Positions 1,160-59,802 of a stretch of DNA of 64,000 bases are shown here, piece after piece. Origin of the DNA: Hemileia vastatrix (taxonomy: Eukaryota > Basidiomycota > Pucciniomycetes > Pucciniales > Zaghouaniaceae); contig JASXTE010000011.1 of assembly GCA_030280995.1 (NCBI GenBank), forward strand, positions 6,059,501 through 6,123,500. The letters are read 5' to 3'. Numbering within the stretch: the first letter of the stretch is position 1; each line of letters starts with the position of its first letter. A program made the translations under genes and the position numbers. The notes below the pieces were generated by a model, which was not told the DNA's origin, made no database searches, and was given only the letters and a program-made list of their open reading frames with translations.

Positions 1160-1852
1160 ATGTCTTCCAAAGAACTTGTCGCTCCATGTGAACTCTGCGC
1201 TCGATACCAGGTACCTTGTTTAATGTCCAACCCTAATCTTCCTGGCAGAACAGCTTGCGACTTATGCCGTGTGAAAAAAGTCAAATGCAACCGGCCAATA
1301 GTTCCTTCTAAAACAAACGTATATTTAGGACCAGCAGCTCTCCCTGATCCCTCAACTTCTAAAAAGCGATCCAAAATTCCTGTCTTCTTAAAACGAATAA
1401 GATCAAAAACAGCTTCAAAAGTTCAATCTTCATCAACGGATCCCGGCCTAATTTTGCCTTCACAAGATCCTAATCCTATAACGCCAGTACCCCCAACTAA
1501 CTTTGCTGAGACTATGTTTCCTGGCTCTAAATGTAAGACCCTATTTATCTTACTAAAAAAAACTTTTAATCAAAATTGACTAAACCTATGACTTAATAAC
1601 ATATTTGAACTTCTAGCTGTCGAAATAACCAACACTGATGATGTTGGTAGAGTGAAGACAGACTATATCAATCATTACCCAAATTTTCATCGCTATCTTT
1701 TTCTTGACTTTACTAATGAGTTGAAACGAAAAATGCTGGCCTATTTTCAAGAAACTCCAGCTAATAACCATGAAGACCTCATGAAAAGAAGAATTTTAAT
1801 GCAAAGCTTTGATAATGATGTTGAACAATTTCAAAGAAATTATCTTTTCTAA
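1160..1852 (+). CDS. Antisense gene A of E1: small Zn2Cys6-like protein (two exons)
   Basis: Two exons, 1160-1532 and 1617-1852, join across an 84-nt phase-1 intron (GTAAGA...TTCTAG) to give about 202 aa. Residues about 10-40 show C-x2-C-x6-C-x12-C-x2-C-x6-C, and the second half (ACDLCRVKKVKC) resembles the basic half of fungal Zn2Cys6 clusters. A Ser/Pro-rich linker follows. The C-terminal 75 residues are helix-prone and include AYFQETP, matched in gene B (AYFQRYP). The gene starts 124 bp inside the 3' LTR and points toward pol. No Gag, Pol or Env feature is visible. A DNA-binding accessory role is inference; the cysteine spacing and the splice are seen directly. Confidence 0.8.
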
Positions 1853-2437
1853 CAGTATAACTTAATAAAATTTTGTTTTTGCTTGGTCTTCTTAAACTTT
1901 CAACATAAATGATGTTTTCTTTCTTCTCTGGCTTGATATAACATAAAATAAAATAAATCTTGTGATGATTCCACTACTGAGAGCAAGGTTTGAATCCCTT
2001 CAGACTCCCATATACCAGTCTTCCTTCTTGTCACAGCATTGAGAGAGTGGATCTTCCTATGAGCCGAATACTCCTGATTCCAACCTCATAGGGCCCCCCA
2101 CTGAGCCGAATTCTATGATTCCAATCTCGCCATAAGGTCCTCCAAGCTTCACACCAAAAAAAAATGGCCTAACTATGAGGCACTAAAAAAAATCATTCCC
2201 TAAAATCCAACTACCATCCTAACTTCTGATTCCTTCATCACAATTTTCAAACTTTGCTATACAGCAAACCCATAAAATACTTTTGCCAGGCTTCCAATAA
2301 TAATTTTAACTTTAGACCATGTTAAAGCGCCACAAATTCCACCTAATTAACCATTATGCTTTCCTTAGCATCATCACCACCTAAAATTTTAACCTCCTAA
2401 AGCTTATCAGCACCCAATTCCAGAAATAATTGAATAA
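1853..2437. other. Spacer between antisense genes A and B
   Basis: No convincing coding frame. It contains a short duplicated phrase (CTGAGCCGAAT...CTATGATTCCAA type) near 2057-2130. It probably holds the terminator of gene A and the distal promoter of gene B. Confidence 0.5.
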
Positions 2438-2905
2438 CCAGTTTAGAGTCTTAGTGGACAGTGATAAATTAAAAGATTGAATTGAGTTATCCAAACAAGA
2501 TTGACATTCCAGTTTAAAGTCTTGGTGGACCAAACATATAATCGATTGCCAGTTTATGGTCTTGGTGGACCAAAGATCGTTTAAGTGCATAAATATCTTG
2601 ATATATTCCTAAGTAAGGCCTAGGCTTGACCAAAGATTGAATAAATTTGATAATCCAGTTTAATGTCATAGTGGACCAAACATTTGATCGACAAGTAATC
2701 CAGTATAAGGCCATAGTGGTCCAACGAATGTTGAATTATCCTGCAGATATTAATTTTCCAGTTTAAAGTCATAGTGGACTAAAGAATGAATGAACTACCA
2801 GTTTAAAGTCATGGTGGACCAAACATTTAATCGATAAGAAATCCAGTTTAAGGTCATGGTGGACCCAGCACATGATAATAGTCCAGTTTAAGGTCTTGGT
2901 GGACC
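2438..2905 (+). repeat. Cluster of nine CAGTTTA hairpin motifs upstream of gene B
   Basis: Nine copies of a 23-nt motif start at 2438, 2509, 2549, 2655, 2700, 2758, 2798, 2843 and 2883. Each reads CCAGTTTA (one CCAGTATA), then a short inverted repeat around a 6-nt loop such as TTGGTG. Arms vary together: TGGTC/GACCA at 2549, AGTC/GACT at 2758, AGGTC/GACCT at 2883. The cluster lies within 570 bp upstream of the gene B start and has the same orientation relative to gene B as the E2 cluster (58694-59100). Regulation of gene B is inferred from position. Confidence 0.85.
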
Positions 2906-3004
2906 TAACAACTTCTCTATCCTTGAACCCAGATTTTGCCACCAGCTTTCTTCATCCTAGTTTCAAGTTTTCTTCTTCAAAAAAAAAAAATATCTCCTAA
3001 CAAG

Positions 3005-4018
3005 ATGAAACCTTCTGACTTCATTGCTTCAGCTGATCAATCTTGCAAATACTGTGCCTTCACCCATAGGGAATGTATCTTCTCTTTTAACTGGCAAAAG
3101 CACACTTATAACAGGGCCTGTTTATCCTGCTATGAGAAGAAAAGAAAATGTTCTGGCTTGAACTGTGGTTCTTTCCCCATCACTGCTACTAGCTTCGCCA
3201 CCTTCTGCAAACCTCTTCCTTCTTCTTCACCTTCTACTCCACCCCCTATTCCATCAACCTCTAAAGATCCCATACCTTTTTCTCCATCAGCCTATTTAAA
3301 CCTTTCTCCATCACCTAATCCTCTGGGTCCTTCTCTCCAATCTAGACTTGCTGCTAGTTCCCCAAGAACTCTTGCTACTCCCAGGGCCATGCTTCAGCCT
3401 TCTAACAATTCTTCTCCTTCTTCCAACATCTTGAAGCACAAAAGGTCCTATAATAGCCAGCAGTCTTCATCTTCTCTTGTTTCATCCAAAAGGCCCAGAA
3501 CATCTACTTCAAACACCAAATCCAACACCAGTCCTCCTCATCTATCAAAAATAAAAAATCCTTTCCTAAACATAAAAAATCCCACTCCATTACCAAGTAA
3601 GCCATTTATCTATGATCATGATAGTGTTGACACAGGTTAGTTGTCTCTTTTTATTTTCTTAATCTTCAGGTTTTAATTTGCTGATATTTTAATTTGATAA
3701 GCGTCCACCGGTTCTCCAATTTCATATTCTGCTTATGAACTACCAGAACCTAATCCAAGCTTCCCTAGAGTTCCAATTCACCTAGTGTCTGAAAAGCTTT
3801 TTGCCAATTTTAATAACCTTATCGCTTATTTCCAACGATACCCGCCCTCTGATAGATCAGAATCTTGGATGAGAGAGCAACTGTTAAGAGACCTTTTCAA
3901 AATAGCCAACTGGCTTCAACACTATCGTGACCGTGAAATAAGATTTGAATCCCAGGAAATCAATCAAGGTCCTTCTAAATTTTCTAATTTCGATTCTTCA
4001 AAAGATAACAACCCTTGA
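3005..4018 (+). CDS. Antisense gene B of E1: Zn2Cys6-like protein, paralogue of gene A (two exons)
   Basis: Exons 3005-3635 and 3702-4018 flank a 66-nt phase-1 intron (GTTAGT...ATAAG), giving about 315 aa. The ATG at 3005 is preferred to the in-frame ATG at 2936, which would add a hydrophobic leader followed by an A-run translation. Near the N-terminus the cysteines follow C-x2-C-x6-C-x14-C-x2-C-x6-C, with YEKKRKC as the basic part. A long Ser/Pro-rich low-complexity linker follows. The C-terminal 80 residues carry AYFQRYP and a helix-rich segment alignable with gene A. The shared order of domains and intron phase argue for tandem duplication. Transcription factor-like function is inferred only. 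Confidence 0.8.
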
Positions 4019-4616: not shown

Positions 4617-4749
4617 GCATCACCTTTACAATAATTCATAATATATATTAAAGAAAAGAAATCACAATCTAACATAAAAAAAATCAAAAACAAAATAAAA
4701 TAAAAAAAATCTTGAATCCGGCGTTGAGAGCAGTGTCTCTTGATTTGTT

Positions 4750-4772
4750 CCAGTTTATAGTCTTAGTGGACT
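4750..4772 (+). repeat. Isolated CAGTTTA hairpin motif
   Basis: CCAGTTTATAGTC TTAGTG GACT shows the same motif as the cluster at 2438-2905. Downstream, about 4850-4930, is a stretch with GGGGGTAATTGATGGGCTGG on the element strand that recurs in E2 near 53410, 55650 and 58910. Confidence 0.75.
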
Positions 4773-5096
4773 TCCTAAAATTAAAAGACAAAGCCAGGAT
4801 TCAACTAGATACAGGGAAAATTTTGGAAACGAACATTATGGGGTGATTGTGTATAGAGCAGCCAGCCCATCAATTACCCCCACACTTGCCAATATTAAAT
4901 TAAGAAGGTTCCCCTGTGAACACTTCTTCCAATAAATTTTAAAATTTTTCCAACACTATCTTCACCCATATTTTAAGAATTTTTAATTTTTGAAAATTTC
5001 AAAGAAGGTCTTTTTAAATTTTGTTAAGTTTCATCACAGTTTCATCGCCCATATGCAGTGTAATGATAGTAAAGTATTTTTGATAAAAATAAGAAG

Positions 5097-5314
5097 ATAG
5101 TTTATACTTGTTGCGGAGGTATAAATTTAATAAAAGTCATTAAAATTGTAGTTTATCCTCATTTCGGAGTTCGTCCATATAATTTCATAAATGTCATAGT
5201 TTATCCTCATTGCGGAGGAATCCGTAAAATTTCATCAATATCATAGTTTATCCTCATTGCGGAGGAATCCATAAAGTTTCATTGATATCATAGTTTATCC
5301 TCATTGCGGAGGAA
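5097..5314 (+). repeat. Tandem 46-47-bp repeat carrying TCCTC/GAGGA hairpins at the pol 3' end
   Basis: Five units start near 5097, 5148, 5196, 5243 and 5290. Three read TAGTTTA TCCTC ATTGCG GAGGA. The last overlaps the pol stop, where it encodes the RNEDKL C-terminus. E2 keeps the same motif at its pol end (53266-53286). Confidence 0.9.
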
Positions 5315-8300
5315 GACTTCGGCACTCCTGGTGCCTCTAGGATAGAACCGTTTCACTTGATCGGCCGCTACCCTCTTCTTCAATACTACTCCATCCAACT
5401 CTTCTAGCACATATGAACCGCCGGAAACTTGCTCCTTGATTTTATACGGTCCATTCCACCTATCTGCAAACATTTTTCCCCACTGACTTTCCAAACTCCT
5501 ATTATACACCAGGACCATATCACCTGGGTTCAAAGGTTTCCTTAATCGATGTGCCAACCGCTCATCCCAATATCTAACTGATTGATTTCGGATCTTCATC
5601 ATCCGTGAATATGCCTTTTCTAAATATTCTTCTTTCTTTTCTAGCTGCATCATTCTTGCACACAATAATTCTTCAGTAGTTTTGACCGTGTCCCAGTCAA
5701 CTCCAAGATATGATTCAGCTTCTAAATCAACCGGTAAAACTGCTTTCTGTCCAAAAACAAGTTCATAAGGTGAAAATCCGGTCGTCCTTTTGGCAGTGAT
5801 TCGATCAGCAAATAAAACTAAAGGTAAATAGTGCCTCCACTTTTCAGCACTTGTCCCACACATTTTAACTAAAGCATCCTTAATAACTTGATGCCCTCTT
5901 TCAACCATGCCTTCAGCTTCAGGATAATATGGGGTTGCTACCCTAACCTTTGATCCAACTTTCAATACGGCCTCTTTAATCTCTGTCCCAAATTCAGGAC
6001 CTCCATCTACCGTAACCAACTTCATCACCCCATACCTATATACCCAATTATTCAAAAAAAATTCTGCCACATTTTTGGCAGTTAAATTAATAAGAGGCGC
6101 TGCCTCTACCCAACCAGATAAATCATCTCTGGCCACAATTAAATATTTATACCGTCCCTCTTTTATATGAACGGCATCTAAACTAACTCTCCCAAAGAGC
6201 GTATGTTCACCGGTCACGCGTCCAGGTTCTTTTGGCCTTAAATAACTTTGTCTTTGACATTCTTCGCATGACTGAACCCACTGTTTAACAGCCATCTTCA
6301 TGCCAGGCCACCAAAATCGATCAGAAATTCTTCTAAATGTTTCTCCAACTCCTCTATGCCCGAGATCTTCATGCAGTGATTTCAAAACTAATTCTTGCCC
6401 CTTCTGTTGAGTTATAACTACTTGAGGATTTGGATACCTCCTCCTCATTAAACATCGACCAGATAGGTAAAACGTAGATGACTTCCTCTTGATAGCCACC
6501 CATTCATCGTCTTCACAATCTTCTGGCCTCTCTAAAGTCAACAAATATTTGACTAACAAAAAATAAAAACCAGTCTGACCCCAGACTTCATCTTGAAAAT
6601 CGATTAATATAACATCAATAGGGACTTCTCTATCACCAATATCACCTGCACATGAATGAGCCAATAATCGTTGACCCCTAAATAAATTTTTAATCGAGCT
6701 ATGTCGACGTTTTTCTTCTGAACCTTTGGATCCTTCGAAAACCGTAGTTGAAAATACCTCTTTCTCTTTATCCACCTTTTTATTTAAATTCTCTAATTCT
6801 CCAACATATACACCATTCCTTAATTTACTACTATCCCACACTACCAATCCATTTTCCTCTACATACACCACATCTTCTTCTACCTCCTCTCTGCCGAATT
6901 TATCTACACCTTTTCCAACACCTTTATTAACATAAAAACTATTTTCCAGTTTATCCTCTTGGTGGAGGTCAACTTCACCATAATCTAAACACAATAGTCC
7001 TGCCAGTTTAACCTCATGGGGGAGGTATGGAAAGTCTTCAGCTCCTTTAGTGCTGGCTTTGATAATAGGTATATCTTCATCGAACTCTTCTGAGTCTGAA
7101 TCTTCTTCAGTGGGTGGTCTCCTTGATAAACCATCTGGCATAGTAAAAGTTTTGCCAGGCTTATGAACTAAATCAAACGAAAAATGTTGAATAAAAGCTA
7201 CCCATCTCGTCATGGGTGCGTTCGGTAAACTTGGGGAATTAATCATCTGGATTAACGATTTTGCATCCACTTGCAACTCAAAATGTTGCCCCCACAAAAT
7301 ATGCTGAAGTTTCTTCAGTATTTTTGCCACACCACATAATTCCAATTTCGGTTGAGAATATCTTGATTCGACCTCAGTAAATACTACCGATTCATACCTA
7401 ACTGGCCTGATGTAACCAGCTTTATCCATCTGAGACAAAACCGCCCCAGCTGCAACCTGACTTGAATCAACTGCTAAATAAATTCTGCCAGCTTCTTTTC
7501 CATAATCCAACTTGTGCAGGACTAAATCCTTCCCCACAACCTCCTTCAACTTCACAAACGCCTTCTCACACTCTTCATCCCACTCCCAGTCTGCATCCTT
7601 TCTCGTTAACCGTCTCAATGGAGCTGCCAATGAAGAAAAGTCCTTAATAAACATTCTAACATATACACAAACGCCTAAAAACCCTCTAACTTCGGTCGTA
7701 TTCTTGGTTCTTGGCCAGGACTGAATTTTGTTAACTTTCTTCTTGGACATAATCCTACCCTCTCTACATACCACATGGCCTAATATTTCTAAGGCTGGCA
7801 CACAACAGGAAAATTTTGAACCTGAAATAGTTAAACCAGCCTCTTCAATTCGAAACAAGATTCTTTCTAAAGTAATTGCAAACTCCCAAATGAATTTGCG
7901 TATCCCGGGATTCTCTTCCAACACCTGGTTATCATAGTCGGTTGTTGGTCCCTTAATTCCTCCATCATCTATAAAGATTCCAGCATATTGTGGAATTTCA
8001 TCTTGAAGGATCCAAGCCATCTGAGCTTGATAAACTGCAACCGAATTTGTTGCTCCTTGAGGTAATCTTGTTAACTGTAAACGTCCAAGTGGTGTATCGA
8101 ATGTAGTGAGAGGCCTTGAGTCCGGATGTAACTCTCTCTCATCATATCCACCCATAATATCTCCCAAACCATAGCACACTCTCCCTGCAAACGCTTCAAC
8201 AAACTCCTCAGCACTAGGTGGTATCCCAGCATCCTTTATTGTAACCCTATTTAATTCCCTAAGATCATGAACAACTCTAAGCTTGCCATTCGGTTTCTTG

Positions 8301-9628
8301 ATACATAATACAGGACTAGAATAACTTGACGTTGATTGCTCATACAGTCCAGTGCGTATCCGTTCTCTGACAACTTCAATATAGGCTTCTTTTAATGCAG
8401 CCGGAATAGGAATCGGTTTCTGCTGCCACGGTTCATGACATACCACAGGAATCTTGTAAGGCTCCCCATAGGAATGCTTCAACACACCCCTCTCCTCTCC
8501 TTCAAAAGCAATGGCCTTCTCTCGCTTGACCATCACATCCAACAACAACTTCTTCTCTTCTCCAGACAACCAACCATCAGGTCCAAAATTAACAACACCC
8601 AGTCTCTCAAAAGTGATTCTTGACGTCTCAGAAAATTCAGGCGGATTCTTTACCAAGGGACTTTCATAAGGATCTCTTGATAACCTTGGTCTTCTCAAGG
8701 GTGGATTTAATTCAGCAGGTAGCGGTTCATTAATAGGTCGAACTTTATTTGCTACTTTCTTATATTTGGCTGCGTCCACATCTAAATTAACTTGAGGTAA
8801 AACATCGCCATTAAAACTCTCATCAAATGAATCTTCTTCATCGCCAGAATCAGAATAAGAAAAATTAGAAAAATATTTTATTTCATTTTTAAATTTTACC
8901 CTTTTCTCCTTTCCCTCGTCTAATTTATAAACAGATTTTCCAACACCTTTTCTTCCCTTATCCAACAGTAAATCACCCGTAAAGAAAGTTGGCAGTTTAA
9001 CCTCTTGCTGGAGAACCGGAATTGAATTTTCACAAAAATTATTTTTTTGTGTTTTAATTATACCGAGATTTTTTATTTGATTTTGATGAGATTTTCGCAG
9101 TTTACCCTCTTGCTGGAGGTCCGAAATAGAAGGTGATAATTGCAGTTTAACCTCTTGCTGGAGGTCCGTAATAGAAGGAGATAATTGCAGTTTAACCTCT
9201 TGCTGGAGGTCTGGAATAACCTTTTCACATAAATTATTTTTTTGTGTTTTAATTATACCAAGATTTTTAATCGGATTTTGATGAGTTAATTGCAGTTTAC
9301 CCTCGTGCTGGAGGTCCATATACATACCCTTCCAATTTTTATCCAACCTAATTTGGCCCATTTTGCCTTTTTCACCGTTTTTAAATTTAATAGAAAAACC
9401 GGGTAAATCCAATAAACATATAGAAAAGTCCAAAAAGTATTTGCACTCCAAAGTAATATTAACAGAAAATAATTGAGAATCCACTTGAATTATCTCCAAG
9501 TGAGCTGACCTATTGCAATCCGGGATCTCATCCTGAGGAGAGATTACAACATTAGAGCGATCAGCCCCTGCTACCCCAAAAAATGAGGGCAACCATAATA
9601 ATTTGAATCCTGAATAAATTGAAGACAT
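5288..9628 (-). CDS. E1 Pol: reverse transcriptase, RNase H and integrase (1446 aa, intact frame)
   Basis: The protein copies element RNA and integrates the cDNA. Domains in order: a unique N-terminus with five copies of a LQQEVKLQ-type repeat (about 104-213); reverse transcriptase (about 420-615) with LPQGATNS and active-site FIDD at about 552-555; RNase H (about 710-835); an acidic linker; integrase with HHCC finger (H1086, H1091, C1121, C1124) and D1151, D1208, E1243, a DD35E spacing; then a GPY-like C-terminus. No aspartic protease DSG/DTG motif and no chromodomain are visible. The frame has no stops, unlike E2. It follows gag after 56 nt in a different frame. Orthology to the E2 pol fragments is clear along the length. 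Confidence 0.95.
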   Translation of the reverse strand: MSSIYSGFKLLWLPSFFGVAGADRSNVVISPQDEIPDCNRSAHLEIIQVDSQLFSVNITLECKYFLDFSICLLDLPGFSIKFKNGEKGKMGQIRLDKNWKGMYMDLQHEGKLQLTHQNPIKNLGIIKTQKNNLCEKVIPDLQQEVKLQLSPSITDLQQEVKLQLSPSISDLQQEGKLRKSHQNQIKNLGIIKTQKNNFCENSIPVLQQEVKLPTFFTGDLLLDKGRKGVGKSVYKLDEGKEKRVKFKNEIKYFSNFSYSDSGDEEDSFDESFNGDVLPQVNLDVDAAKYKKVANKVRPINEPLPAELNPPLRRPRLSRDPYESPLVKNPPEFSETSRITFERLGVVNFGPDGWLSGEEKKLLLDVMVKREKAIAFEGEERGVLKHSYGEPYKIPVVCHEPWQQKPIPIPAALKEAYIEVVRERIRTGLYEQSTSSYSSPVLCIKKPNGKLRVVHDLRELNRVTIKDAGIPPSAEEFVEAFAGRVCYGLGDIMGGYDERELHPDSRPLTTFDTPLGRLQLTRLPQGATNSVAVYQAQMAWILQDEIPQYAGIFIDDGGIKGPTTDYDNQVLEENPGIRKFIWEFAITLERILFRIEEAGLTISGSKFSCCVPALEILGHVVCREGRIMSKKKVNKIQSWPRTKNTTEVRGFLGVCVYVRMFIKDFSSLAAPLRRLTRKDADWEWDEECEKAFVKLKEVVGKDLVLHKLDYGKEAGRIYLAVDSSQVAAGAVLSQMDKAGYIRPVRYESVVFTEVESRYSQPKLELCGVAKILKKLQHILWGQHFELQVDAKSLIQMINSPSLPNAPMTRWVAFIQHFSFDLVHKPGKTFTMPDGLSRRPPTEEDSDSEEFDEDIPIIKASTKGAEDFPYLPHEVKLAGLLCLDYGEVDLHQEDKLENSFYVNKGVGKGVDKFGREEVEEDVVYVEENGLVVWDSSKLRNGVYVGELENLNKKVDKEKEVFSTTVFEGSKGSEEKRRHSSIKNLFRGQRLLAHSCAGDIGDREVPIDVILIDFQDEVWGQTGFYFLLVKYLLTLERPEDCEDDEWVAIKRKSSTFYLSGRCLMRRRYPNPQVVITQQKGQELVLKSLHEDLGHRGVGETFRRISDRFWWPGMKMAVKQWVQSCEECQRQSYLRPKEPGRVTGEHTLFGRVSLDAVHIKEGRYKYLIVARDDLSGWVEAAPLINLTAKNVAEFFLNNWVYRYGVMKLVTVDGGPEFGTEIKEAVLKVGSKVRVATPYYPEAEGMVERGHQVIKDALVKMCGTSAEKWRHYLPLVLFADRITAKRTTGFSPYELVFGQKAVLPVDLEAESYLGVDWDTVKTTEELLCARMMQLEKKEEYLEKAYSRMMKIRNQSVRYWDERLAHRLRKPLNPGDMVLVYNRSLESQWGKMFADRWNGPYKIKEQVSGGSYVLEELDGVVLKKRVAADQVKRFYPRGTRSAEVFLRNEDKL
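8992..9316. repeat. Five CAGTTTA hairpin motifs inside the pol N-terminus
   Basis: Copies begin at 8992, 9097, 9142, 9187 and 9292. The plus strand reads CAGTTTAACCTC TTGCTG GAGGT; read in the pol sense this encodes DLQQEVKLQ-like peptides. Two copies sit in near-identical 45-bp tandem units (9134-9220). Two further motifs lie between RNase H and integrase (6946-6970 and 7003-7027). Confidence 0.9.
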
Positions 9629-11063: not shown

Positions 11064-11067
11064 ACTA

Positions 11068-12237
11068 TGGTAAGGTAAACTCTTACAGTTGCCTTGCTGT
11101 AAGCAGAATCCGGAGGAGATATGTGGATTTAGCTGAAAACCCCGTCCTTCCAATAAAAATAACAAAATGGGAATTCTAAATCACTAAGCTAACCAATCTA
11201 CTTGAATCTGATTGATAAAAATAATGAAACTCTAAAATAATTAACGCTTATTGAGATTTAAAGAAAGTGGCTGTTGATAAAGAAATACTGATAACAACAA
11301 TTAAGGTGTACCAGTGAAAGATCTTTAAAGATTGACTTTTATGTTTTTATAATAATTTGAATTTTTATGAGACAGCAATAATCAAGTCCCAGCGACGAAG
11401 ACCTTTCTAAAGATACCCTGTATGAAGTGTTATTTAAACTGTTGAATTGTATTTCTAAGATGTTATGTAAAAATAATAATGTTATAAGGGTATTACAAGT
11501 TATTTTAATTTGTTGAGTAATAAAAAATGAGACTGTGGTGGTTAAAGATTAAGCTGTATGATGTGTCCCCCCTCTCAATTTCGAGTTTGAGAAGCGCTTA
11601 AGTATTCCTAGTCACGTGCCTAAGTTTTCCCCTCCAGAGCTCTTCCAGAGTCAATCCGGAGCCCGTACGGAGTCCGTACGGAGTCCGTACGGAGTCCGTA
11701 CGGAGTCCGTACGGAGTCAAAGCGGAGTCCGTACGGAGTCGAAACGGAGTCCGTCCGGACTTCCGGACTCAATTTAGAACCTTAAAACTATAATAAAAAA
11801 TCTAGAAAAATTACACATAATAGAGCTACTTCCCCTTTACATACCAAACTAATTTTCGTAGTCTGCGCAGCTCTAATTACCCCGTGAAAATTCATCAAAG
11901 TTAAGTAATTTTTGAAAACGTAAATATTTCTATAAAACTTTAAAATTCATTTAAAAATATAAGAAAAATAGTAAAAAATTCTGGGAAAATTTCCCAAGGT
12001 TCTTGAGTGACTCGACTTAATACTTATAAATTTTTCAGACCGTAAAAATAAGTTTTCTCCGTAAAATAAATTGTTTTCGTGTAGGCATTCGCTCGTGACC
12101 AATTTCTTCATATTTAAAACTCAAATTAATTAAATAAAACCCTTTTATAAATAAAAAAAAATAATAACGCCAATCTTGCACGCCGTAATAACTCCATTTA
12201 CATATTTAGGTGCCGTACTAAACTTTAGGCTACCACA
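11068..12237 (-). repeat. E1 5' LTR (1170 bp)
   Basis: Complete LTR, TGTGGTA...TACCA. It holds nine 11-bp units (GGAGTCCGTAC family) at 11658-11756. The outer end abuts the interrupted gag of another Ty3 copy at 12238. The promoter and polyadenylation signals should lie here but no TATA box could be fixed with confidence. Confidence 0.95.
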
Positions 12238-12740
12238 CCGGCTAGGAATGAGGAAGCATAAACAAACTTCAATTGGTCGTTATTGAAGGTTCTAGGGTCA
12301 TTATGGAACAGGAGCTTTCAGGTTTGGAAGAAGGGCCGCAATCTGTTGGGATGTTCTCCATCAAATTTATCAGGAGATTTCATAGAAGGAGTTTTGAATT
12401 TAGATCCCTCTGAAGACGTTGAATTTGAAAGGGTCTTCATGAAAAGTCTCATGAAATCTTCCAGAGAATTAGATGTTCCAGGTTCCAAAGGTTGACCAGA
12501 AGGGTGAGTAGCAGGGGCGGATGGTGCCTCATGCATTGTATCCTCTTCTTCTTCTTCATCACTAGAGTCATCAAAATCATGTGGGATGTCTTCTACAGAT
12601 TGGACTGAATGTTGCCGTTCCATTAGGTCGAGTGGCTCCAAGGAGTGAGTGCTGGAAACAGGCCGTGTGGCTGTTGGCCTGCCTCTGGCGCAAGCTCTAG
12701 TAGTAGCGCCCGTAGGAGGAGTGCGTTGGACAGGTGCCAT
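12238..12740 (-). pseudogene. Gag N-terminus of E3-type element, disrupted by E1
   Basis: From ATG at 12740 the translation (MAPVQRTPPTGATT...) closely matches the E3 gag start at 24393, including SPDKFDGE and the acidic DDSSDEEEEED run. A frameshift near 12318 and the E1 insertion end it. Only about the first 165 residues remain. Confidence 0.9.
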
Positions 12741-12818
12741 TTTAAGAATTTAGAGAAAAACACCTGAAAAGGGACGTAGTAGTGCAAAGAATGAGAACTA
12801 TGGAGAATTAAATTATAC

Positions 12819-23516: not shown

Positions 23517-24316
23517 TGTCATGCGCCACGTGACACTCGAGGCAAAAGTAGCTCATTAAATTAATAATAAGAGGCTCAAATCCATACTCAAAGTTCAGAA
23601 AGAAATTCTCCATAGAAACTGCGACTTTCCTTTGTGTACTCCCTATTCAACTGCGCTAGCCTAAACTCTAAATCTAAATTAGTCAATCTCTCAATAGTGT
23701 GTGTTAGTCTTTTTCTCAATAAGTGACGCACAGCGCAATAGTTAATATAATAGTACATTAAAAGGTTTATGAAATGTCTGTGGGTTATTAAGGGGTAGTG
23801 AGTATGGACGGAATGGTTAGTGAAGGATTAAAGGGTTAACAGATGTTAGTGAGGAGGGTCCAGGTGTAACGGATGTATATTAATGGTCTGTGGTGCGTGG
23901 AATAGTGGATGGGTATGAGGTCAATGCGAGGAGGAGTAAAGGATATAAAAGGGGTTGGGTATTTGGTTCGATACTCTTCAGAATTAAATTATAAAACGTA
24001 TTTATAGTTAATAGTGGTAAAATCTTTTCAGTTAAATCATTATTATTGTATCTTTCTTTAGTTTCTCAATAATAATTTCTAAATCCTAAATCTTTGATTG
24101 TTGAGTTTCCAACCCTTCATGAGATCTTAAGAATTTTAATATTACCTTTCAATTATATTAGAATCCTTCTCAAACATAGCTCGAAGCAGTAGTTCTTCCT
24201 TCAAGTCAACTTCAAATCACTTCCTCAAATCATTCCTCTGCTTCAAAGAAGTCTCTAAGCTCCTCATCTCACTTACAGGAACATCCTCAACCTTGTGCGT
24301 AGGTCGTCCGGTGACA
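23517..24316 (+). repeat. E3 5' LTR (800 bp)
   Basis: Begins TGTCATGCGCCACGTGACAC and ends TGACA. A TATA-like GGATATAAAAGGGG lies at about 23941-23954, a plausible promoter. Confidence 0.9.
23941..23954 (+). promoter_or_regulatory. Probable TATA box in E3 LTR
   Basis: GGATATAAAAGGGG is conserved in the 3' LTR copy near 31376-31389 and, on the reverse strand, as an AAAAGGGGTT-type match near 13180-13200. Confidence 0.6.
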
Positions 24317-29936: not shown

Positions 29937-30900
29937 TTAAATTTTCTCTTTTATCTTCTCCTGAACCAATCCCTTCATCTTCTCCAAAATTTTCCTTATC
30001 TCCTTTCTACATTTTTCAAAATTCTCCCCCTCTCCTACCGGAATCAGTTCTCCAAGTTCCAGTAGCTCCTCGGCTACGTCAAAGGAAGAGGCATCGATAA
30101 TCTTATTGATTTCGCCGCTCAAGTCTTCAATAAATCTCAACTGTCGAACCTGACGAGGCTTCTTTGACCATACCTGATTGAGGGTTTCTTTGTGTTTCTC
30201 CCTTGAGGTAACCGCCAGTAATCTATCTTTGACTGACACTGCCACTTCCACAGCAGTGGGTTCCACAAGGGTCGCTTCCACATTTAAAGCTTCCTCCATA
30301 GGGACTTCGATGATGACGTCTGAATTCTAAAACAAAATCATCAGTACCTAAATTTCTAAAATATCAGGAAATAGACTTACTTCAAAAATAGGGTCAACCT
30401 CCAAAAATAATTTTGGAGTGACCTCCACCGCCACATCCCTCTCCTCTTTGTCATCTTCAATGACCACCCTTCACTTTTTCGGGGTCCTCCTCGACCAACT
30501 TGTCAACTTCCTCTTCTACTACTTGCTTCTTGCTCGCAGCCCGAGTCACCCAGGTTGCCACATCATCCTCATCCTTCTCCTCACTCTCCCCCACTGATTG
30601 ATCGTCCCCAATTTAGAAGTCCCAAATGTCTTTGACTACTTCCTTCGTCTTAGGGATTACCCAATATTTTGTCTTAGTGAACCGACTCTCGATATCGGCA
30701 TTCTTTGACAAGGTGTCACACGCCACCCTTCTCCATCGGCAAAATTTGCACTTCTGGCAAGGCCCTTGTGTCGCCGTGCTTTCTACGCAAAAATATTCCA
30801 TTGACTCGCAGGCCGTGCAAGTCTTGGAAAACTGTCGTGTAACAATACCCCTATCCGCTTTAGGGTGTGGGGAAATCCGTCATAGAAGGGAAGTTAGTGT
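29937..30900 (-). pseudogene. Antisense Zn2Cys6-like gene of E3 (one stop, one frameshift)
   Basis: On the minus strand a segment ending near 30700 reads C-x2-C-x6-C-x12-C-x2-C-x6-C, spanning CTACESMEYFC and CKFCRWRRVAC, with one extra Cys pair in the spacer. After an in-frame stop (about 30614) the frame remains open in an acidic region, shifts once near 30470, then crosses a clean 54-nt phase-0 intron (30380-30327, GTAAGT...TTTTAG) into a 108-codon exon ending at 29937. The C-terminus is helix-rich and charged but not clearly alignable with genes A/B. The start is lost. Position matches the antisense genes of E1 and E2. Confidence 0.7.
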
Positions 30901-30951: not shown

Positions 30952-31751
30952 TGTCACACACCACGTGACACTTGAGGCAAAAGTAGCTCATTAAATCAAT
31001 AATAAGAGACTCAAATCCATACTCGAAGCGCAGAAAGCAATTCTCCATAGCAACTGCAACTTTCCTTTGTGTACTCGCTATTCAACCACGCTAGCCTAAA
31101 CTCTAAATCTAAATGAGTCAATCTCTCAATAGTGTGTGTTAGTCTTTTTCTCAATAAGCGACGCACAGCGCAATAGTTAATATAATAGTACATTAAAAGG
31201 TTTATGAAATGTCTGTGGGTTATTAAGGGGTAGTGAGCATGGACGGAATGGTTAGTGAAGGATTAAAGGGTTAACAGATGTTAGTGAGGAGGGTCCAGGT
31301 GTAACGGATGTATATTAATGGTCTGTGGTGCGTGGAATAGTGGATGGGTATGAGGTCAATGCAAGGAGGAGTAAAGGATATAAAAGGGGTTGGGTTTTTG
31401 GTTTGATACTCTTCAGAATTAAATTATAAAACGTATTTATAGTTAATAGTGGTAAAATCTTTTCAGTTAAATCATTATTATTGTATCTTTCTTTATTTTC
31501 TCAATAATCATTTCTAAATCCTAAATCTTTGATTTTTGAGTTTCCAACCCTTCATGAGATCTTAAGAATTTTAATATTACCTTTCAATTATATTAGAATC
31601 CTTCTCAAACATAGCTTGAAGCAGTAGTTCTTCCTTCGAGTCATCTTCGAATCACTTCCTCGAATCATTCCTCTGCTTCAAAGAAGTCTCTAAGCTCTTC
31701 ATCTCACTTACAGGAACATCCTTGACCTTGTGCGTAGGTCGTCCGGTGACA
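30952..31751 (+). repeat. E3 3' LTR (800 bp)
   Basis: Begins TGTCACACACCACGTGACAC and ends TGACA, followed by the duplication GTATA. It differs from the 5' LTR at a modest number of scattered positions. Confidence 0.9.
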
Positions 31752-45828: not shown

Positions 45829-46729
45829 TGTGGTGTCACAAAGCTGGGTAGGCTTTTGGAATGCATATTTGGAGGTATTTGGAATGTAGGGTATAGTTGG
45901 GGTTATAGTGTTGTTTATTGGTGTTTTGTTAGTTTTTAGATGTTTACTTGTGTTTTTGTAGGCTTAAGCTAGGGTCACTTATTATGTCTCAGCTTAATGT
46001 ACTTTCTTTTCTCATCATTTTGGTATGTGTTATGTGTGAGTAGCTTGTTTCTACATGTAGTTACTGTTGTTTTGTTGTTTAGAAGGTGTTTTTGAGTTTT
46101 TTTGGGCATTTAAAGGTGTAAAAGCGGCCGTCCCTATGTCAGGAGGCCTGCCTGCCTGCGCATGTGGAAGCCTCTAGAGGCGTTTTTATGCATGTAGAGA
46201 GGTGGGAGAGTTGGATTTGGCTGGGAAAAAGCCAGGGTGATCTGTGGGTGAGATAGTTAAGCAAGCTTAAGGAAATTCTAGTTTATCATCAACAATCTGG
46301 TATACCTGGAATCTCTGTGCTTCACCCTTTTATGTGTTTGGGGCATCTTTTGGCTGGGATGTGAAAAGTTTAGTTCTTACTTGACCTCAACTCTTGTCAC
46401 TGTTTTCTCTGGTATAGTATTACAAGCTATATCAAGTATTATTTCTGTTCTTGGTGTGGCTTTGCAACATACATCAAGTATCCTTGCTTTCTCTGATGTG
46501 GAAATTGGTCTACATTTCAGCTCTTTTGTCTGGTAGTCTTTCTGGTGACTACTTTCTTGGCTGATCAAGCAGTCAAGTGTGTTGGAAAGGGGTTTTAGCA
46601 AACAAGACTCAATTTAATATAGCAGGTAAATCTCACACTATTTTTAAAAAGGGACAGGGGATCTTCTCTCTGGTTTTTCTCCAACTCCCTTGGTCAAGGC
46701 CTATAGCTAGTACTATAAGATTGTCTACA
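45829..46729 (+). repeat. E2 5' LTR (901 bp)
   Basis: Begins TGTGGTGTCACAAAGCTGGG and ends TCTACA. It is longer than the 3' LTR mainly because of a 133-bp segment between two TTTGGCTGGG repeats (46216 and 46349). It also has about 42-bp tandem units at about 46410-46500 that keep a minus-strand frame open in both LTRs. Confidence 0.9.
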
Positions 46730-46733
46730 TTTC

Positions 46734-53277: not shown

Positions 53278-53286
53278 GATAAACCA
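53266..53286 (-). repeat. CAGTTTA-family motif at the E2 pol end
   Basis: CCGCAATGAGGATAAACCA is the reverse of the TAGTTTATCCTCATTGCGG motif that covers the E1 pol stop (5290-5314). Confidence 0.75.
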
Positions 53287-55035: not shown

Positions 55036-55194
55036 ATTAAGTGCTAGACTCTTCATTATTATTGGTTTTTGGTTTATTGTGTTGGATGTTTGTTTTATTT
55101 AGAAGGTACGCATGGGGGGGGCTTCTATATTTTTTTTTTGGAAAGTGTGGAGTTAACTTATAGGCTGGCCGCTCTGTAGAAAGGTTAACCCAGA

Positions 55195-55432
55195 AACTAC
55201 ACAATATAGGGGTTGGACTTGCTAGCAAGTCCCCAACCTGAACTCAGACAGAACTCTGATGGAACTCATACTGAACTCTACTTGAAGACTCACAAAAACT
55301 GTTCTGCTGAGTGGTGTTCATCCCTGATTGTATTGTTCCTTTTTCAATAGCTCAATGTGTGTTCAATCTGTGGTGAATTTGAGTCCAAGGCTGAGGACTT
55401 TCTAACAAGTCCGCCCCCCGTATTGCGTGGTG
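55195..55432 (+). mobile_element. CACTA-type MITE copy 3 (238 bp, TSD AGA)
   Basis: Ends AACTACACAATAT / TATTGCGTGGTG, flanked by AGA on both sides (55192-55194 and 55433-55435). GACTTGCTAGCAAGTC is perfect near the left end. Confidence 0.9.
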
Positions 55433-55821
55433 AGAATATATGTTCCAAGTCTTTTGTCTTTCCTAGTTGAAATGTAGTTCTGTTTTTTTTTTGCAATTCA
55501 GGTTTTAGTCCTTTATGACTTTAAAATGGATTTCTGTAGTCTTCAAGTGCTGGTCTTCTCACTGTGGGGATGTTTTGTGTGGGATTTTTGGTTTTTTTAG
55601 AAGGTACCCAGGGGGGACCTCTAGGTTTTATTTTGGCAAGTGTGGGGGTAACTGATGGGCTGGCAGCTCTGTATAACACTTACCCTGGAATGTCTGTTTC
55701 AAGTCCTTGGTTTTATTAAGTTGAATCCTAGTTCTATGATTTTATTCAGGTTCTTAGTCCTCTATGAATTTAAACCAGATTAGACTGGATTCTTGGTTCT
55801 TTATTAATTCTTGGTGGTGGA

Positions 55822-55873
55822 TCACTGGTGGTCTCCCATCATTTTTACTTATTTGAGGGAGCCCACCCAGTGA
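55822..55873 (+). other. Conserved hairpin 2 in E2
   Basis: TCACTGGTGGTCTCCC...GAGGGAGCCCACCCAGTGA, the counterpart of 4566-4616 in E1. Confidence 0.75.
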
Positions 55874-56010
55874 TGTTTTCTTTGGAACTGGATTTTCTTC
55901 TGTGATTTTTTGTGATGGAATGGAATTATAGCGCTCTTACATTATTTTCTTTTTTTTCTTTTATTCTGCTAGTGAGGGTTGTTTATAAAATAAAAAATTA
56001 GTTGGATGTA

Positions 56011-56231
56011 CCACATCAAGGTCACCTGGATTTGGGCAAGCATTGGTGGGGAAAAGCTCATCAATTGGCTGGGAAATGTCAGTTTTCTTTTTATATTATT
56101 ACTTCTCAAGTTTCTTTTATTCATTAATTTTATTGTTTTCATTTTCAATTTTTCTTTATATGTTCAAATTACTTTTCAAATCTTTAACATTTCTTGAAGG
56201 TGTATCCACATCAAGGTGCACTTGGATGTGG
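56011..56231 (+). other. Two copies of conserved hairpin 1 in E2
   Basis: CCACATCAAG-loop-CTGGATTTGG at 56011-56035 and CCACATCAAG-loop-CTTGGATGTGG at 56206-56231. Both are followed by a CAGCTCATCAATTGGC-type phrase, so the unit is duplicated. E1 has one copy at 4465-4490. Confidence 0.75.
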
Positions 56232-56390
56232 GTAAGGTATCAGGGGATCAGCTCATCAATTGGCAGGGGGATACCATTTGTAATTATTATTTATTCTATC
56301 TTATTATTGTTCAATTTTATTTTCTCCATATTTTTTTGATTATTTTTCAAGTTTTTTTTTAGTATGTTAGTAGTTATAGGTAATATCTGT

Positions 56391-56452
56391 CTACAAATAT
56401 AAAAATAAATAAATAAATAAAATAAAATAAAATAAAAAAATAAAAAAATAAA

Positions 56453-56512
<60 letters not shown>

Positions 56513-56914
56513 TAAAAATAAAAATAAAAATAAAAATAAAAATAAAAATAAAAATAAAAATAAAAATAAAAATAAAAATAAAAATAAAAATAAAAATAAA
56601 AATAAAAATAAAAATAAAAATAAAAATAAAAATAAAAATAAAAATAAAAATAAAAATAAAAATAAAAATAAAAATAAAAATAAAAATAAAAATAAAAATA
56701 AAAATAAAAAATAAAAATAAAAATAAAAATAAAAATAAAAATAAAAATAAAAATAAAAATAAAAATAAAAATAAAAATAAAAATAAAAATAAAAATAAAA
56801 ATAAAAATAAAAATAAAAACAAAAATAAAAATAAAAATAAAAATAAAAATAAAAATAAAAATAAAAATAAAAAAAAATAAAAATAAAAATAAAAATAAAA
56901 ATAAAAATAAATTA
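56391..56914. repeat. (AAAAT)n microsatellite, about 520 bp
   Basis: Almost pure AAAAT/AAATA pentanucleotide repeats. It lies downstream of the antisense genes, at the place where E1 has its TTTTA tract. Confidence 0.97.
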
Positions 56915-57129
56915 TTTTTTTTAACTTCTAATTTTTACTTGTTTTTTTTCTTTAATTGTATTTATCTATTTATTAATTTATATTATTTTCTGTTTTTTAT
57001 AATTTATTCTCTGGAGGAAGAAGCTTCTGGAGGTTGGTTTCGGATGTGTTGGTGTTTCTGTCTCTTGTTGGGATTGGAGGATGCATTGTGTTCTTTGTGG
57101 TGTATTCTGCTGGAAATATTGTAGGGGTT

Positions 57130-58498
57130 TTAATAGTCTGGGACTGGTTTGGAAGGTAGTCTTTGGGAGGAAGCAGAAGAGGATGGGATGGAATGTTGGA
57201 AGGTGTGCTTAATTATCCTTGACATCTTCCAGTTGTTTTCCAGAAGTTTCTTTTTCAGGGTGCTTTCAAACTCATTCAATGGTCCATGAAGAACAAAGAC
57301 CTTTAGAATGTTGGAACACATTATGCTTAGGTTCTGTTTCATATCAGCATAATCCAGAGTTTATGTAGTTTCAAGGGGTTGGCCAAATCTAATAGTAGTT
57401 TCAGGAGAAGGGGTGCCATCTAAAAAAGAAGAATTTTGTTCAGAAGTTGTTTTTTGTTGATGAAATTGGATCAAAGATTATGGTACTTACAGATTAGAAG
57501 CTCTTCAAAATTATATGCTGTAGGAATTCTGACTTCTGAAGGTTTGGAAAGAAGTGTGGTGGAAGGATCATCCAGAGATAAATATGAGTTATCTTGGTTT
57601 TCTTCCAGTGGATGCTGAGAAGGTGAGCTACATTAGAACTCTTCCTGGGGCCTAGCTAGAAAAGGGGAATTGTTGTTGTTGTTGTTATTTTTATTGTTAT
57701 CCTGCTCTGTTGGATTGGTTGCTGGTACTGGGGAACTAATGTTGTTGGAGGATGGGGCAGGTGAAAGTGATCTGGGGGCTGAATTCTGTCTTCTGGAGGA
57801 ATTAATTGAAGAGAAGGAACTGTCAGAGGAGTATTTGGCAGGCATAGGGGAGGTGTAGTTTCTTCTCCTGGACGGAGAAGGTGATTTTGGTTGTTGAGAA
57901 GTTTTGGGAGCCCTGATTTGTTCTTGGGGAGCCCTGGTAAGTCTTCTTGAAGTTTGGGAATTTTTGGTGTTACTGGATCTTGAAAATTTTGCTTGCATTT
58001 CTCTGGGAGCACAAGGAGGTTCTTTTGCAGAAGTTTGGGGGTTTTTTTGCAGAATTTTGGTTGTTTTTTTGGTTTTTTTTGGTTGTTTTTAAAGGTGTTG
58101 AGCCTAATTTTTGTTTCCCAGAAAGGCAGGCAGGCTGCCTGGAGGTGGTCTAGCAGCATAGGAGCTGAATTTGAAGCATTTGAAGTGGAATTAAAAGAGA
58201 TAAAAGCAGATTCTTGGGAAGATAGATGTGGCTGTTTTGTGAGAGTTCTGGGGATGGATCTTCTGGATCTTCTAGATCTTCTGGAAGGAACTGAAGACAA
58301 AGATGAAGAAGCAGGACCTAGTTCTAAAGATGTATTTGTGAGATGGTGAAGGGGGAGGTAAAGGATAGTTGAAATCTCTATCACATCTTTTCTTCTTTGA
58401 ATTGAAAGAGTCACAAGCCCTGTTGTACATTTTGGCCTCTGGAGTTGGAAGAGTGAATGTACAGGGTCTGCACATGTGAATGCACTTTTTTCAAGCAT
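57130..58498 (-). pseudogene. Antisense gene B' of E2: degraded Zn2Cys6-like gene
   Basis: On the minus strand an ATG at 58498 begins a region with CRPCTF...NRACDSFNSKKKRC, a zinc cluster that has lost its third and fifth cysteines and shifts frame. A Ser/Pro/Lys-rich linker follows to a GTAAGT donor at 57490; a 71-nt intron ends TTTTTTAG at 57420 and the frame resumes in phase 1, as in genes A and B. After one stop (about 57360), NEFESTLKKKLLENNWKMSRI aligns loosely with the gene B C-terminus. It lies between the AAAAT tract and a CAGTTTA cluster, as gene B does in E1. Confidence 0.75.
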
Positions 58499-58693
58499 AG
58501 TCTTTGGGAGCAGTGAAGCAAGGAAGGGTTGAGGGTTTAACAGCAGGTAATTCAAGGTTTGAAATGATCTGTGGTGGAATAAAAATGATAAAGAGAATTA
58601 GATAAGAAAAGTTTTTTTTCTTTTTTTTATCAGTTATGGGTAGAAGATGAAGTGGAAGTTGAAGCTCAGCAAGTGGAATGTGGCGAATATGCA

Positions 58694-59100
58694 TTAGTCC
58701 ATCAAGACTCTATACTGAAAAATGTATTAGTCTATCAAGACTCTAGACTGAAATATGCATCAGTCCATCAAGACTTTAAACTAAAAAGTCCTTACAGTCC
58801 CCCAAGACTATAAACTGAGGAATGGGTGTTTTTTTGGTATTAGTTTTGAATATTGGAAGAGGGTATCAGCAGGGGGAGCCTCTGAATTTAGCAAAGGCAA
58901 TTTCGGGTGTAATTGATGTGCTGGAAGCTCTATTCACAATTACCCCATAATTTTATTATTTTCTCTGTGTCTTAATGTGATTTATCTCTGGTTCTGAGTT
59001 TATGATTTAGGTTTAGAGTCCCCCAAGATTATAAACTGAGGGTTTTTGAGTCCCCCAAGACTATAAAATGAGGATGGTTCCCCAAGACTTAAAACTGAGG
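58694..59100 (-). repeat. CAGTTTA hairpin cluster of E2, upstream of gene B'
   Basis: At least seven copies (from 58694, 58726, 58761, 58796, 59020, 59049 and 59078). On the gene B' strand they read CAGTTTATAGTC TTGGGG GACT and variants such as AGTC TTGATG GACT. Position and orientation match the E1 cluster at 2438-2905. Confidence 0.85.
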
Positions 59101-59175
59101 ATTTTTTGGTAGCTACATCCTATAGAGGGTGTGGTCATATTTTCTTTTCTAAATCAAACTCAAGCACTAGTGGAA

Positions 59176-59802
59176 TCACAGAAAGGTATCAAGAGAGGTG
59201 GGAAAATGTTCTGAATTGGCCTTGAATTTTCGGATGAGGTTCCTTCATTTATCAATATCTTGTTGGTCCTTGGCAGGAGTTGATTGAAAGTAAGAAAGGA
59301 GGAGTTTTTTCTGTTGTTGGGTGTGATGTTGTAATTTTTCTTTGAAAATAAGTAGTGGATTTGGGGGTGGTGTTTAAATGGTCCCTACATTGTCATCATC
59401 ATCAATGACTGATGGAAGAGAGGCTGAAGAAAATGGTCAGTCTAGTTTGGTATGGAGTGATGGAATATTACATTCTGGTGAATCAGGGTGATGAGAGGAA
59501 AAAGAGGCTGTTGGAGTTACAGGTTTTCTTCTGGATGAATGAAGTTTGTTGATTATTCTTGGAAAGATGATGGAGGGTCTGGATCTTCTGGTAGAAGAGG
59601 ATGAGCCAGGATGAGTGTTTGAAGAAGCTGAAGGGGAAGATGATGAGCCAGGTCTGTGGCATAATTTCTTTCTGGAGTGGCAGGCATTACAAGAAGTCCT
59701 GTAGATGTGAAGAGGTCCAGTCATTGCACAGATGAGATTGTTGTCAATGTAGTATTGGCAAGGGCCCAGGTCAGAGGCAGGTCTAAAGAGGCATTTTAAC
59801 AT
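59176..59802 (-). pseudogene. Antisense gene A' of E2: Zn2Cys6-like gene with three stops
   Basis: The minus-strand frame from 59802 has C-x2-Y-x6-C-x12-C-x2-C-x6-C, so the second cysteine has become Tyr, with SRKKLC as the basic part and a Ser-rich linker. After a stop at 59437 the same frame stays readable through two more stops to LLLSYFQSTPAK near 59290, matching LAYFQETPAN of gene A. It is adjacent to the 3' LTR like gene A. No intron is needed here. Confidence 0.8.

What the first reader, a model, noticed from the sequence alone, without database searches (positions are those of the whole stretch)
1160..59802. Antisense Zn2Cys6-like genes between pol and the 3' LTR in three Ty3 elements
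E1 (1160-4018), E2 (57130-59802) and E3 (29937-30900) each carry, on the strand opposite to pol and before the 3' LTR, a gene with C-x2-C-x6-C-x12/14-C-x2-C-x6-C. In E1 the polypurine tract at 1037-1046 proves that these genes lie within the element. E1/E2 and E3 belong to different Ty3 lineages (no chromodomain versus chromodomain), so either the module is old or it was gained more than once. Some plant Ty3 elements, such as Grande, have antisense accessory genes, but I know of no fungal case with this cysteine cluster. A self-encoded regulator of the element or its host is plausible.
Basis: partly seen in the sequence, partly recalled or inferred. Interest (0 to 1): 0.92.

Follow-up and report, generated by a model that had tools for sequence, protein, structure and literature searches.

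The report
Antisense zinc-cluster genes inside fungal retrotransposons
Three families of a fungus's jumping genes each carry, on the opposite strand next to the terminal repeat, genes for a probable DNA-binding protein; in one family sequence evolution shows that the gene is kept working, so these elements probably carry their own regulator, a layout known from plant elements, one other fungal element and a human retrovirus.

Summary
The observation largely holds and is stronger genome-wide than in the window. E1, E2 and E3 are LTR-flanked Ty3 elements with antisense genes between pol and the 3' LTR. The six-Cys pattern is exact in E1 A, E1 B and E3 but broken in both E2 genes; the window's E2 and E3 genes are decayed. 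In the window's own 748-Mb assembly each gene searched has at least 126-150 places. In 52 of 52 places read, the family's LTR lies directly 5' of the gene. In the E3 family (17 copies) one intron pattern fits 14 copies, divergence follows codon position, dN/dS is 0.11-0.26 within clades, and in exon 2 only the antisense frame is ever stop-free (6 of 17). The cysteine halves look swapped relative to GAL4, on three weak half-matches. Antisense accessory genes are known in plant Ty3 elements and in fungal Boty (brtn), so this is a new variant of a known kind. Best mechanism: antisense expression, from or beside the LTR, of an element-encoded DNA-binding regulator. The gene is well supported in the E3 family; regulation is inferred. 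The host is probably a rust fungus, not an Agaricomycete.

The parts
1..1036 (-). E1 3' LTR (runs off the window's left end; the full LTR is about 1,175 nt)
   Evidence: 97.4% identical to 11191-12237; other copies align to 11066-12237
1037..1046 (-). E1 polypurine tract GGAGGGAGGA, directly beside the LTR
   Evidence: sequence
1160..1852 (+). E1 antisense gene A: exon 1 1160-1532, intron 1533-1616 (GTAAGA..CTAG), exon 2 1617-1852; 202 aa, Zn2Cys6-like cluster with apparently swapped halves, disordered linker, C-terminal helical hairpin (predicted)
   Evidence: PF00172 24.0 bits
2438..2904 (+). Nine copies of CCAGTTTAnnGTCnTnGTGGAC between gene A and gene B
   Evidence: 20 matches in the window with up to 3 mismatches, 0.02 expected
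3005..4018 (+). E1 antisense gene B: exon 1 3005-3635, intron 3636-3701 (GTTAGT..ATAAG), exon 2 3702-4018; 315 aa, same architecture as A
4840..4900 (+). Conserved spacer block (GGGGTGATTG..CAATTACCCC) on the antisense side of E1; repeated in E2
5288..9628 (-). E1 pol (RT, RNase H, H2C2; rve below cut-off), 1446 aa; no chromodomain matched
11066..12240 (-). E1 5' LTR
11657..11759 (-). 11-bp minisatellite in the E1 5' LTR, unit ACTCCGTACGG in sense; the 3' LTR has it at 458-558
23517..24316 (+). E3 5' LTR (5-bp repeat GTATA flanks the element)
29937..30900 (-). E3 antisense gene, decayed copy: Cys cluster 30718-30819, intron 30380-30327 (GTAAGT..TACTGAT..TTTTAG), exon 2 30326-29937
30952..31751 (+). 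E3 3' LTR
45829..46729 (+). E2 5' LTR
57132..58560 (-). E2 antisense gene B, decayed (stops, lost Cys; start uncertain); candidate intron 57490-57420
59176..59802 (-). E2 antisense gene A, decayed (two stops in exon 2, one Cys lost); exon 1 59802-59472, candidate intron 59471-59424 (GTAATA..CTAGACTGAC..TTCTTCAG), exon 2 59423-59176
59853..60583 (+). E2 3' LTR, about 50 nt from gene A's ATG

Best explanation
Each of these Ty3 families encodes, antisense to pol and with its ATG about 50-125 nt inside the 3' LTR edge, one (E3) or two tandem (E1, E2: A and B) small genes with an intron before the C-terminal part. The proteins have a Zn2Cys6-like six-cysteine cluster whose halves appear in swapped order, a long linker predicted disordered (A), and a short helical C-terminus (A). 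SHOWN: position, strand, LTR linkage, multicopy spread, intron signals, and coding selection in the E3 family. INFERRED: transcription starts in or beside the 3' LTR, so the LTR works in both directions (as in HTLV-1); the transcript is spliced; the protein enters the nucleus and binds DNA of its own element (LTR or spacer repeats), tuning sense gag-pol transcription. Feedback repression that limits copy damage is my first guess; activation against host silencing is second.
For: (1) LTR directly 5' of the gene in 30 of 30 E1, 6 of 6 E2 and 18 of 18 E3-family loci read (52 distinct places: L093/L094 re-read L075/L079; L036 is the window's E1), spacing nearly constant. (2) pol antisense to gene A in 4 of 4 E1 copies; far LTR at the expected place in 3 of 4. 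L094 is a complete E3-type element: LTRs 97.9% identical, 5-bp repeat ATTAA, pol on +, both antisense exons open on -. (3) E3-family divergence by codon position: exon 2 .181/.137/.345 (outside the search query), rest of exon 1 .169/.100/.407, intron flat .254/.255/.265; 26 of 36 exon gap runs are multiples of 3, intron gaps are 1, 2 or 4 nt. dN/dS within clades .11/.17 (exon 1) and .23/.26 (exon 2), dN<dS in 28 of 28 pairs in each of the four sets. Exon 2 stop-free in 6 of 17 copies in the antisense frame and 0 of 17 in each of the other five. (4) One pattern (GTAAGT .. TTTAG) finds the intron in 14 of 17 copies; all 14 show an ACTGAT sequence before the acceptor. (5) Seven E1-family copies share an 81-nt deletion that removes the acceptor yet joins exon 1 to exon 2 in frame. 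(6) DNA-binding character: PF00172 24.0 bits for A; phmmer ties residues 29-88 to PPR1 (E 0.0087) and 31-46 to GAL4 (E 0.44); in the second look at Foldseek's matches 8 of 11 rows shown are Zn2Cys6 chains laid on residues 1-53. (7) E1's LTR holds an 11-bp array rich in CGG/CCG.
Confidence: 0.6

Rival explanations
1. The antisense genes encode a nuclear accessory protein that is not a transcription factor: for example a chaperone, a nuclear-import or integration-targeting partner of integrase, or a blocker of host silencing. The Cys cluster is a structural fold.
For: No Zn_clus match in E3; no shared DNA site across the three LTRs; fast protein divergence between E1 and E2 (A about 26-28% over the first exon, vs pol 64-72% in most pieces), as in conflict genes; plant counterparts are discussed in similar terms (PMC7264820).
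Against: The second half of A aligns with the N-terminal half of PPR1/GAL4; E1's LTR has the CGG-rich array.
Confidence: 0.25
2. The antisense RNA, not the protein, is the working product: spliced antisense transcripts pair with element RNA or feed small-RNA silencing; the reading frame is a relic.
For: Antisense transcripts can act through dsRNA (discussed in PMC7264820). The genes lie beyond pol, so any overlap is with the 3' part of the genomic RNA.
Against: dN/dS 0.11-0.26 and mostly frame-keeping indels in the E3 family, and an in-frame intron loss in E1, need a protein.
Confidence: 0.07
3. Captured host zinc-cluster genes that hitchhike without a role in the element.
For: Zn2Cys6 regulators are common in fungi (recalled); the own genome has 13 PF00172 matches at E <= 0.001 (150 of 3,256 candidates scored).
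Against: Fixed place beside the LTR in the copies read, purifying selection over deep divergence in the E3 family, two pol lineages, apparently swapped halves.
Confidence: 0.05
4. The E3 gene and the A/B genes are independent gains of similar-looking cysteine genes (convergence), not one ancient module. (Not exclusive of the best explanation.)
For: hhalign probability 0.7, E 0.086; intron phase 0 in E3, 1 in A, B and E2-A by my reading; C-termini that look unlike.
Against: Same place, strand and Cys spacing, and a single intron before the C-terminal part.
Confidence: 0.45

Closest known systems
Antisense additional ORFs (aORF-3R) of plant Ty3 elements: Grande gene23, RIRE2, Retand (TRP28), PvRetro13
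   Same: [quoted passage not shown] PMC11963269, part 1 of 5 and passages)
   Different: Different kingdom; no PF04195 or SMC family among the Pfam hits of these proteins; a six-Cys cluster and an intron instead
brtn of the fungal Ty3 element Boty / BcGypsy1 (Botrytis cinerea)
   Same: An additional antisense gene in a fungal Ty3 element (title in the reference list of PMC8365987; figure legend and text of PMC7264820)
   Different: Not compared: the 2011 paper is not held and no brtn sequence was available; whether it has a Cys cluster is not known to me
HBZ of HTLV-1
   Same: Antisense gene with nuclear product (PMC11963269) and an antisense promoter inside the 3' LTR (PMC7264820)
   Different: HBZ is a bZIP regulator of a vertebrate retrovirus (recalled); no sequence relation expected, none tested
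Fungal Zn2Cys6 (GAL4-type) binuclear cluster, PF00172
   Different: Halves apparently in swapped order, linker of 12-14 residues, short proteins of about 200-315 aa, no other Pfam domain above cut-off in them

Membership tests
[quoted passage not shown]
   Three window elements; LTR 5' of the gene in 54 of 54 loci read, 52 distinct places
Antisense accessory gene of Ty3 LTR retrotransposons (aORF-3R class) | Opposite strand to gag-pol | tested here: met
   Window E1-E3; 4 of 4 further E1 copies and L093, L094
Antisense accessory gene of Ty3 LTR retrotransposons (aORF-3R class) | Present in most copies of the family | tested here: inconclusive
   126-150 places per gene scored, but copies lacking the gene were not counted
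Antisense accessory gene of Ty3 LTR retrotransposons (aORF-3R class) | Coding sequence conserved by selection | tested here: met
   E3 family only: dN/dS .11-.26; not resolvable for E1; not tested for E2
Zn2Cys6 binuclear cluster (PF00172) | Six Cys with the C-x2-C-x6-C pattern twice | tested here: met
   E1 A, E1 B, E3 exact; both E2 genes broken in the window
Zn2Cys6 binuclear cluster (PF00172) | Match to the whole domain in the normal order above the curated score | tested here: not met
   A 24.0 bits in two stretches, the best being residues 31-45 on profile 1-15; B 8.1, E2-A 8.8 (one letter mistyped), E3 none. Halves alone: second half of A 23.9 and of B 16.4 on 1-15, first half of E2-A 14.9 on 18-36; five of eight halves no match
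Zn2Cys6 binuclear cluster (PF00172) | Binuclear zinc fold | tested here: inconclusive
   [not shown]
Zn2Cys6 binuclear cluster (PF00172) | Zinc and sequence-specific DNA binding | not testable with these tools
   Needs a bench test
Retand TRP28 (PF04195) | TRP28 domain | tested here: not met
   No PF04195 match for A, B, E3-type or E2-A at E up to 10
Boty brtn | Sequence similarity to brtn | not tested
   No brtn sequence available; paper not held

The most novel reading that the evidence does not exclude
A widespread fungal analogue of HBZ: Ty3 elements of a rust-like fungus encode, from bidirectional LTRs, dedicated transcription factors with a circularly permuted Zn2Cys6 fold that read site arrays in their own LTR or spacer (in E1 the 11-bp CGG/CCG array of 3-12 units), and the LTR and its regulator pass between elements as one 3' module while pol is exchanged more freely.
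Probability: 0.25. Interest if true: 0.83.

Novelty: new variant of a known kind. Interest (0 to 1): 0.67.

Why it matters
Antisense accessory genes of LTR elements have no determined role (so the review PMC7264820 puts it for plants). Here one genome offers more than a hundred copies of each gene, with intron signals, codon-level selection in one family, a candidate DNA-binding cluster and, in another family, a candidate site array in its own LTR. That makes the 'self-encoded regulator' idea directly testable. If the swapped-half cluster binds DNA, it would also be a new topological form of the best-known fungal DNA-binding fold.

Tried and rejected
Spliced retrocopies: seven intron-lacking A copies looked like retrocopied antisense mRNA, but alignment shows an 81-nt deletion that keeps the first 20 intron bases and removes the first 17 bases of exon 2, beside LTRs and with the A-B spacer in place, so they do not prove a spliced transcript. 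RNA as sole product: rejected on codon-level selection. CGG sites as a shared target: rejected; only E1 has them. CpG decay as the cause of the gene's high silent divergence: rejected for L094 vs L093 (non-CpG divergence pol .029, antisense exons .075-.092). Relatives elsewhere: none in the protein collection with A (24 candidates) or with the E3 profile (7,991 candidates), while the same collection gave 1,420 relatives of E3-type pol; none in IMG/VR for the E3 gene, but pol gave none there either, so that negative means little. Absence from protein collections is weak, since intron-split genes in repeats are rarely annotated (recalled). B and E2-A were not searched there. Literature: the searches listed no paper that by title or shown abstract describes a zinc-cluster antisense gene in a fungal Ty3 element; only open-licence papers are held and I opened few. 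PMC2864245, PMC12210899, PMC8063080 and PMC3411680 were searched for words only.
Full report
What is in the window. Three LTR-flanked Ty3 elements are present. E1 (LTRs 1-1036 and 11191-12237, 97.4% identical) has pol on the - strand; E2 (45829-60583) and E3 (23517-31751) have pol on +. Between pol and the 3' LTR, on the strand opposite to pol, lie A and B in E1, decayed A and B in E2, and one decayed gene in E3. A motif scan of all six frames found three exact six-Cys patterns, in E1 A, E1 B and E3. E2 keeps the framework but not all cysteines. The E1 purine tract GGAGGGAGGA stands between gene A and the LTR's first bases TGTGG, so A and B are internal.

They are repeat families tied to LTRs. 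The window is part of a 747.6-Mb assembly. Searches there counted 293 matches for A from 150 scored candidates and 252 for B from 126 (exons counted apart, so about 150 and 126 places), 150 of 150 scored for the E3 Zn piece and 150 of 150 for E2-A; all are lower bounds, since thousands of first-look candidates were not scored. In 30 of 30 E1-type, 6 of 6 E2-type and 18 of 18 E3-type loci read (52 distinct places, the window's E1 among them) the family's LTR lies directly upstream of the gene. The gap from LTR edge to ATG is 123 nt in 24 of 30 E1-type loci (the others 125-162) and 50-51 nt in the E2-type loci. In E3-type loci the searched piece starts 149-155 nt from the edge in 15 of 18 (the others 116-129), which puts the ATG roughly 105 nt from it. 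In four E1 copies pol is antisense to gene A in 4 of 4, and the second LTR is at the expected place in 3 of 4; the fourth stretch (L085) matched another internal part of E1. L094 is a full E3-type element with 97.9% identical LTRs, an ATTAA target repeat, pol on + and both antisense exons open on -. In L093 only one LTR was found in the stretch read.

They are coding, and carry introns. For 17 E3-family copies the divergence by codon position is .181/.137/.345 in exon 2 (not part of the search query) and .169/.100/.407 in the later part of exon 1, against a flat .254/.255/.265 in the intron and .162/.139/.141 in the LTR-plus-leader stretch. Of 36 exon gap runs 26 are multiples of three; intron gaps are 1, 2 or 4 nt. 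Within the two clades of eight copies, dN/dS is .11 and .17 in exon 1 and .23 and .26 in exon 2, with dN below dS in 28 of 28 pairs in each of these four sets (pairs share sequences and are not independent); between clades dS saturates. Control frames of exon 2, between clades, give 1.00, 1.71, 1.03 and 1.96, but one sense-strand frame gives .26, as expected where antisense third positions mirror onto sense third positions. That frame is not a gene candidate: exon 2 is stop-free in 6 of 17 copies in the antisense frame and in 0 of 17 in each of the other five. For exon 1 the figures are 16 of 17, with 4 of 17 in one sense frame, but exon 1 was part of the selection. One pattern finds the intron (GTAAGT to TTTAG, 53-57 nt, with an ACTGAT sequence before the acceptor) in 14 of 17 copies; L076 has the donor but another acceptor (TTTCAG), and L070 and L073 did not match the donor pattern. 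E1 A, E1 B, E2 A and E2 B have a candidate intron at the same relative place, phase 1 by my reading; E3's is phase 0. The E1 family is too young for a codon test.0097/.0077/.0115 in A exon 2 over the 26 of 31 sequences that passed the alignment filter, with no gaps there against many in the neighbouring intergenic stretch. Seven E1 copies share an 81-nt deletion that removes the intron's acceptor and fuses both exons in frame (203 codons; one of the seven lists a TGA and one a TAA).

Sites. E1's LTR contains an 11-bp minisatellite, ACTCCGTACGG in sense. Of 33 E1-type LTR stretches examined, 28 passed my filter, with 3-12 units. It gives 9 CGG-N0..11-CCG pairs against 0.81 in dinucleotide shuffles, 0 of 200 shuffles reaching it; the array is one amplified repeat, so this is one event. 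CGG triplets are what GAL4-type proteins read (recalled). E2 has 1 such pair, E3 0, the L094 LTRs 0 and 0, so this is not a general rule. Between A and B both E1 and E2 keep a different repeat, CCAGTTTAnnGTCnTnGTGGAC (20 matches in the window with up to 3 mismatches, 0.02 expected). Which, if any, is a target is open.

A side result. Between L094 and L093 pol is 4.0% diverged, antisense exons 7.5-9.1%, spacer 10.2% and LTR 7.8%. Silent divergence is .06-.09 in pol and .19-.29 in the antisense gene; L094 vs E3 gives .15-.30 and .66-.69 (the latter over the aligned 386 of 549 and 251 of 345 bases). Either the 3' module (LTR plus antisense gene) has a deeper history than pol, as exchange between elements would give, or pol's silent sites are constrained. 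CpG decay does not explain it.

Host. The nearest named relatives of E3-type pol are proteins of the rust Austropuccinia psidii (92 of the 120 rows listed, by my count; the top row is unnamed). The hit tables show 18 contigs of 25 Mb or more (17 with printed length, C579 by hit position), and the window's G+C is 35.8%. A. psidii has a 1-Gb genome with 33.8% G+C dominated by Gypsy elements (PMC8063080, passages). A rust with n = 18 (recalled) fits better than an Agaricomycete. This is inference.

Mechanism. Most likely the 3' LTR, or the first bases beside it, drives antisense transcription; the transcript is spliced; the protein returns to the nucleus and acts on the element's own DNA. HTLV has an antisense promoter inside its 3' LTR, and Grande gene23 a promoter of its own upstream of the gene (PMC7264820). 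The steps from transcript onward are inferred. Since both LTRs are alike, the 5' LTR should also fire outward into host DNA, which RNA-seq could show.

Place among known things. [quoted passage not shown] What looks new here: a zinc-cluster-like protein, the apparent swap of its halves, tandem A/B paralogues in two families, and codon-level evidence of selection with a conserved intron in a fungal family of well over a hundred copies. I file it as a new variant of a known kind. I do not file it as a Zn2Cys6 member in the strict sense, since a whole-domain match in the normal order was tested and not met. On re-reading my calls I lowered the novel reading from 0.27 to 0.25, because the structural alignments do not show the swap, and the interest from 0.68 to 0.67.

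Noticed in passing
window 11657-11759 and 458-558; loci L010-L038, L086, L087: Variable 11-bp minisatellite (3-12 units, ACTCCGTACGG) in the LTR of the E1 family, dense in CGG/CCG triplets.
   Followed up: partly
window 2438-2904, 4750, 58697-59071: Repeat CCAGTTTAnnGTCnTnGTGGAC between the two antisense genes of both E1 and E2, nine copies in E1.
   Followed up: partly
window 4840-4900, 53379-53542, 55599-55729, 58946: Spacer block with GGGGTRATTG..CAATTAC arms (possible hairpin) in E1 and at 58946 in E2; E2 also has stretches similar to E1 4749-4927 at 53379-53542 and 55599-55729, all on the antisense side.
   Followed up: no
loci L009-L015: Subfamily of the E1 element with an 81-nt deletion that replaces the intron of gene A by an in-frame fusion.
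   Followed up: yes
L093, L094, window E3: pol is less diverged than LTR, spacer and antisense gene between the same elements; modular exchange is possible.
   Followed up: partly
window 12238-13633: Inverted fragment 89% identical to the E3 5' LTR and what follows (23510-24895), directly beside E1.
   Followed up: no
window 38008-39255 and 22546-23175: Fungal protein-kinase-like frame (PF17667) and a Pif1 2B-domain frame, perhaps from a helicase-bearing element.
   Followed up: no
G000 contigs C472, C511, C313, C446, C632, C698, C520 (L001-L005, L007, L008): Seven of the eight best ordinary Zn_clus matches lie on contigs of 22-59 kb, some in long uninterrupted frames; possible foreign contigs in the assembly.
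   Followed up: no
window 62779-63089: Tandem repeat of a 136-bp unit, 2.3 copies.
   Followed up: no
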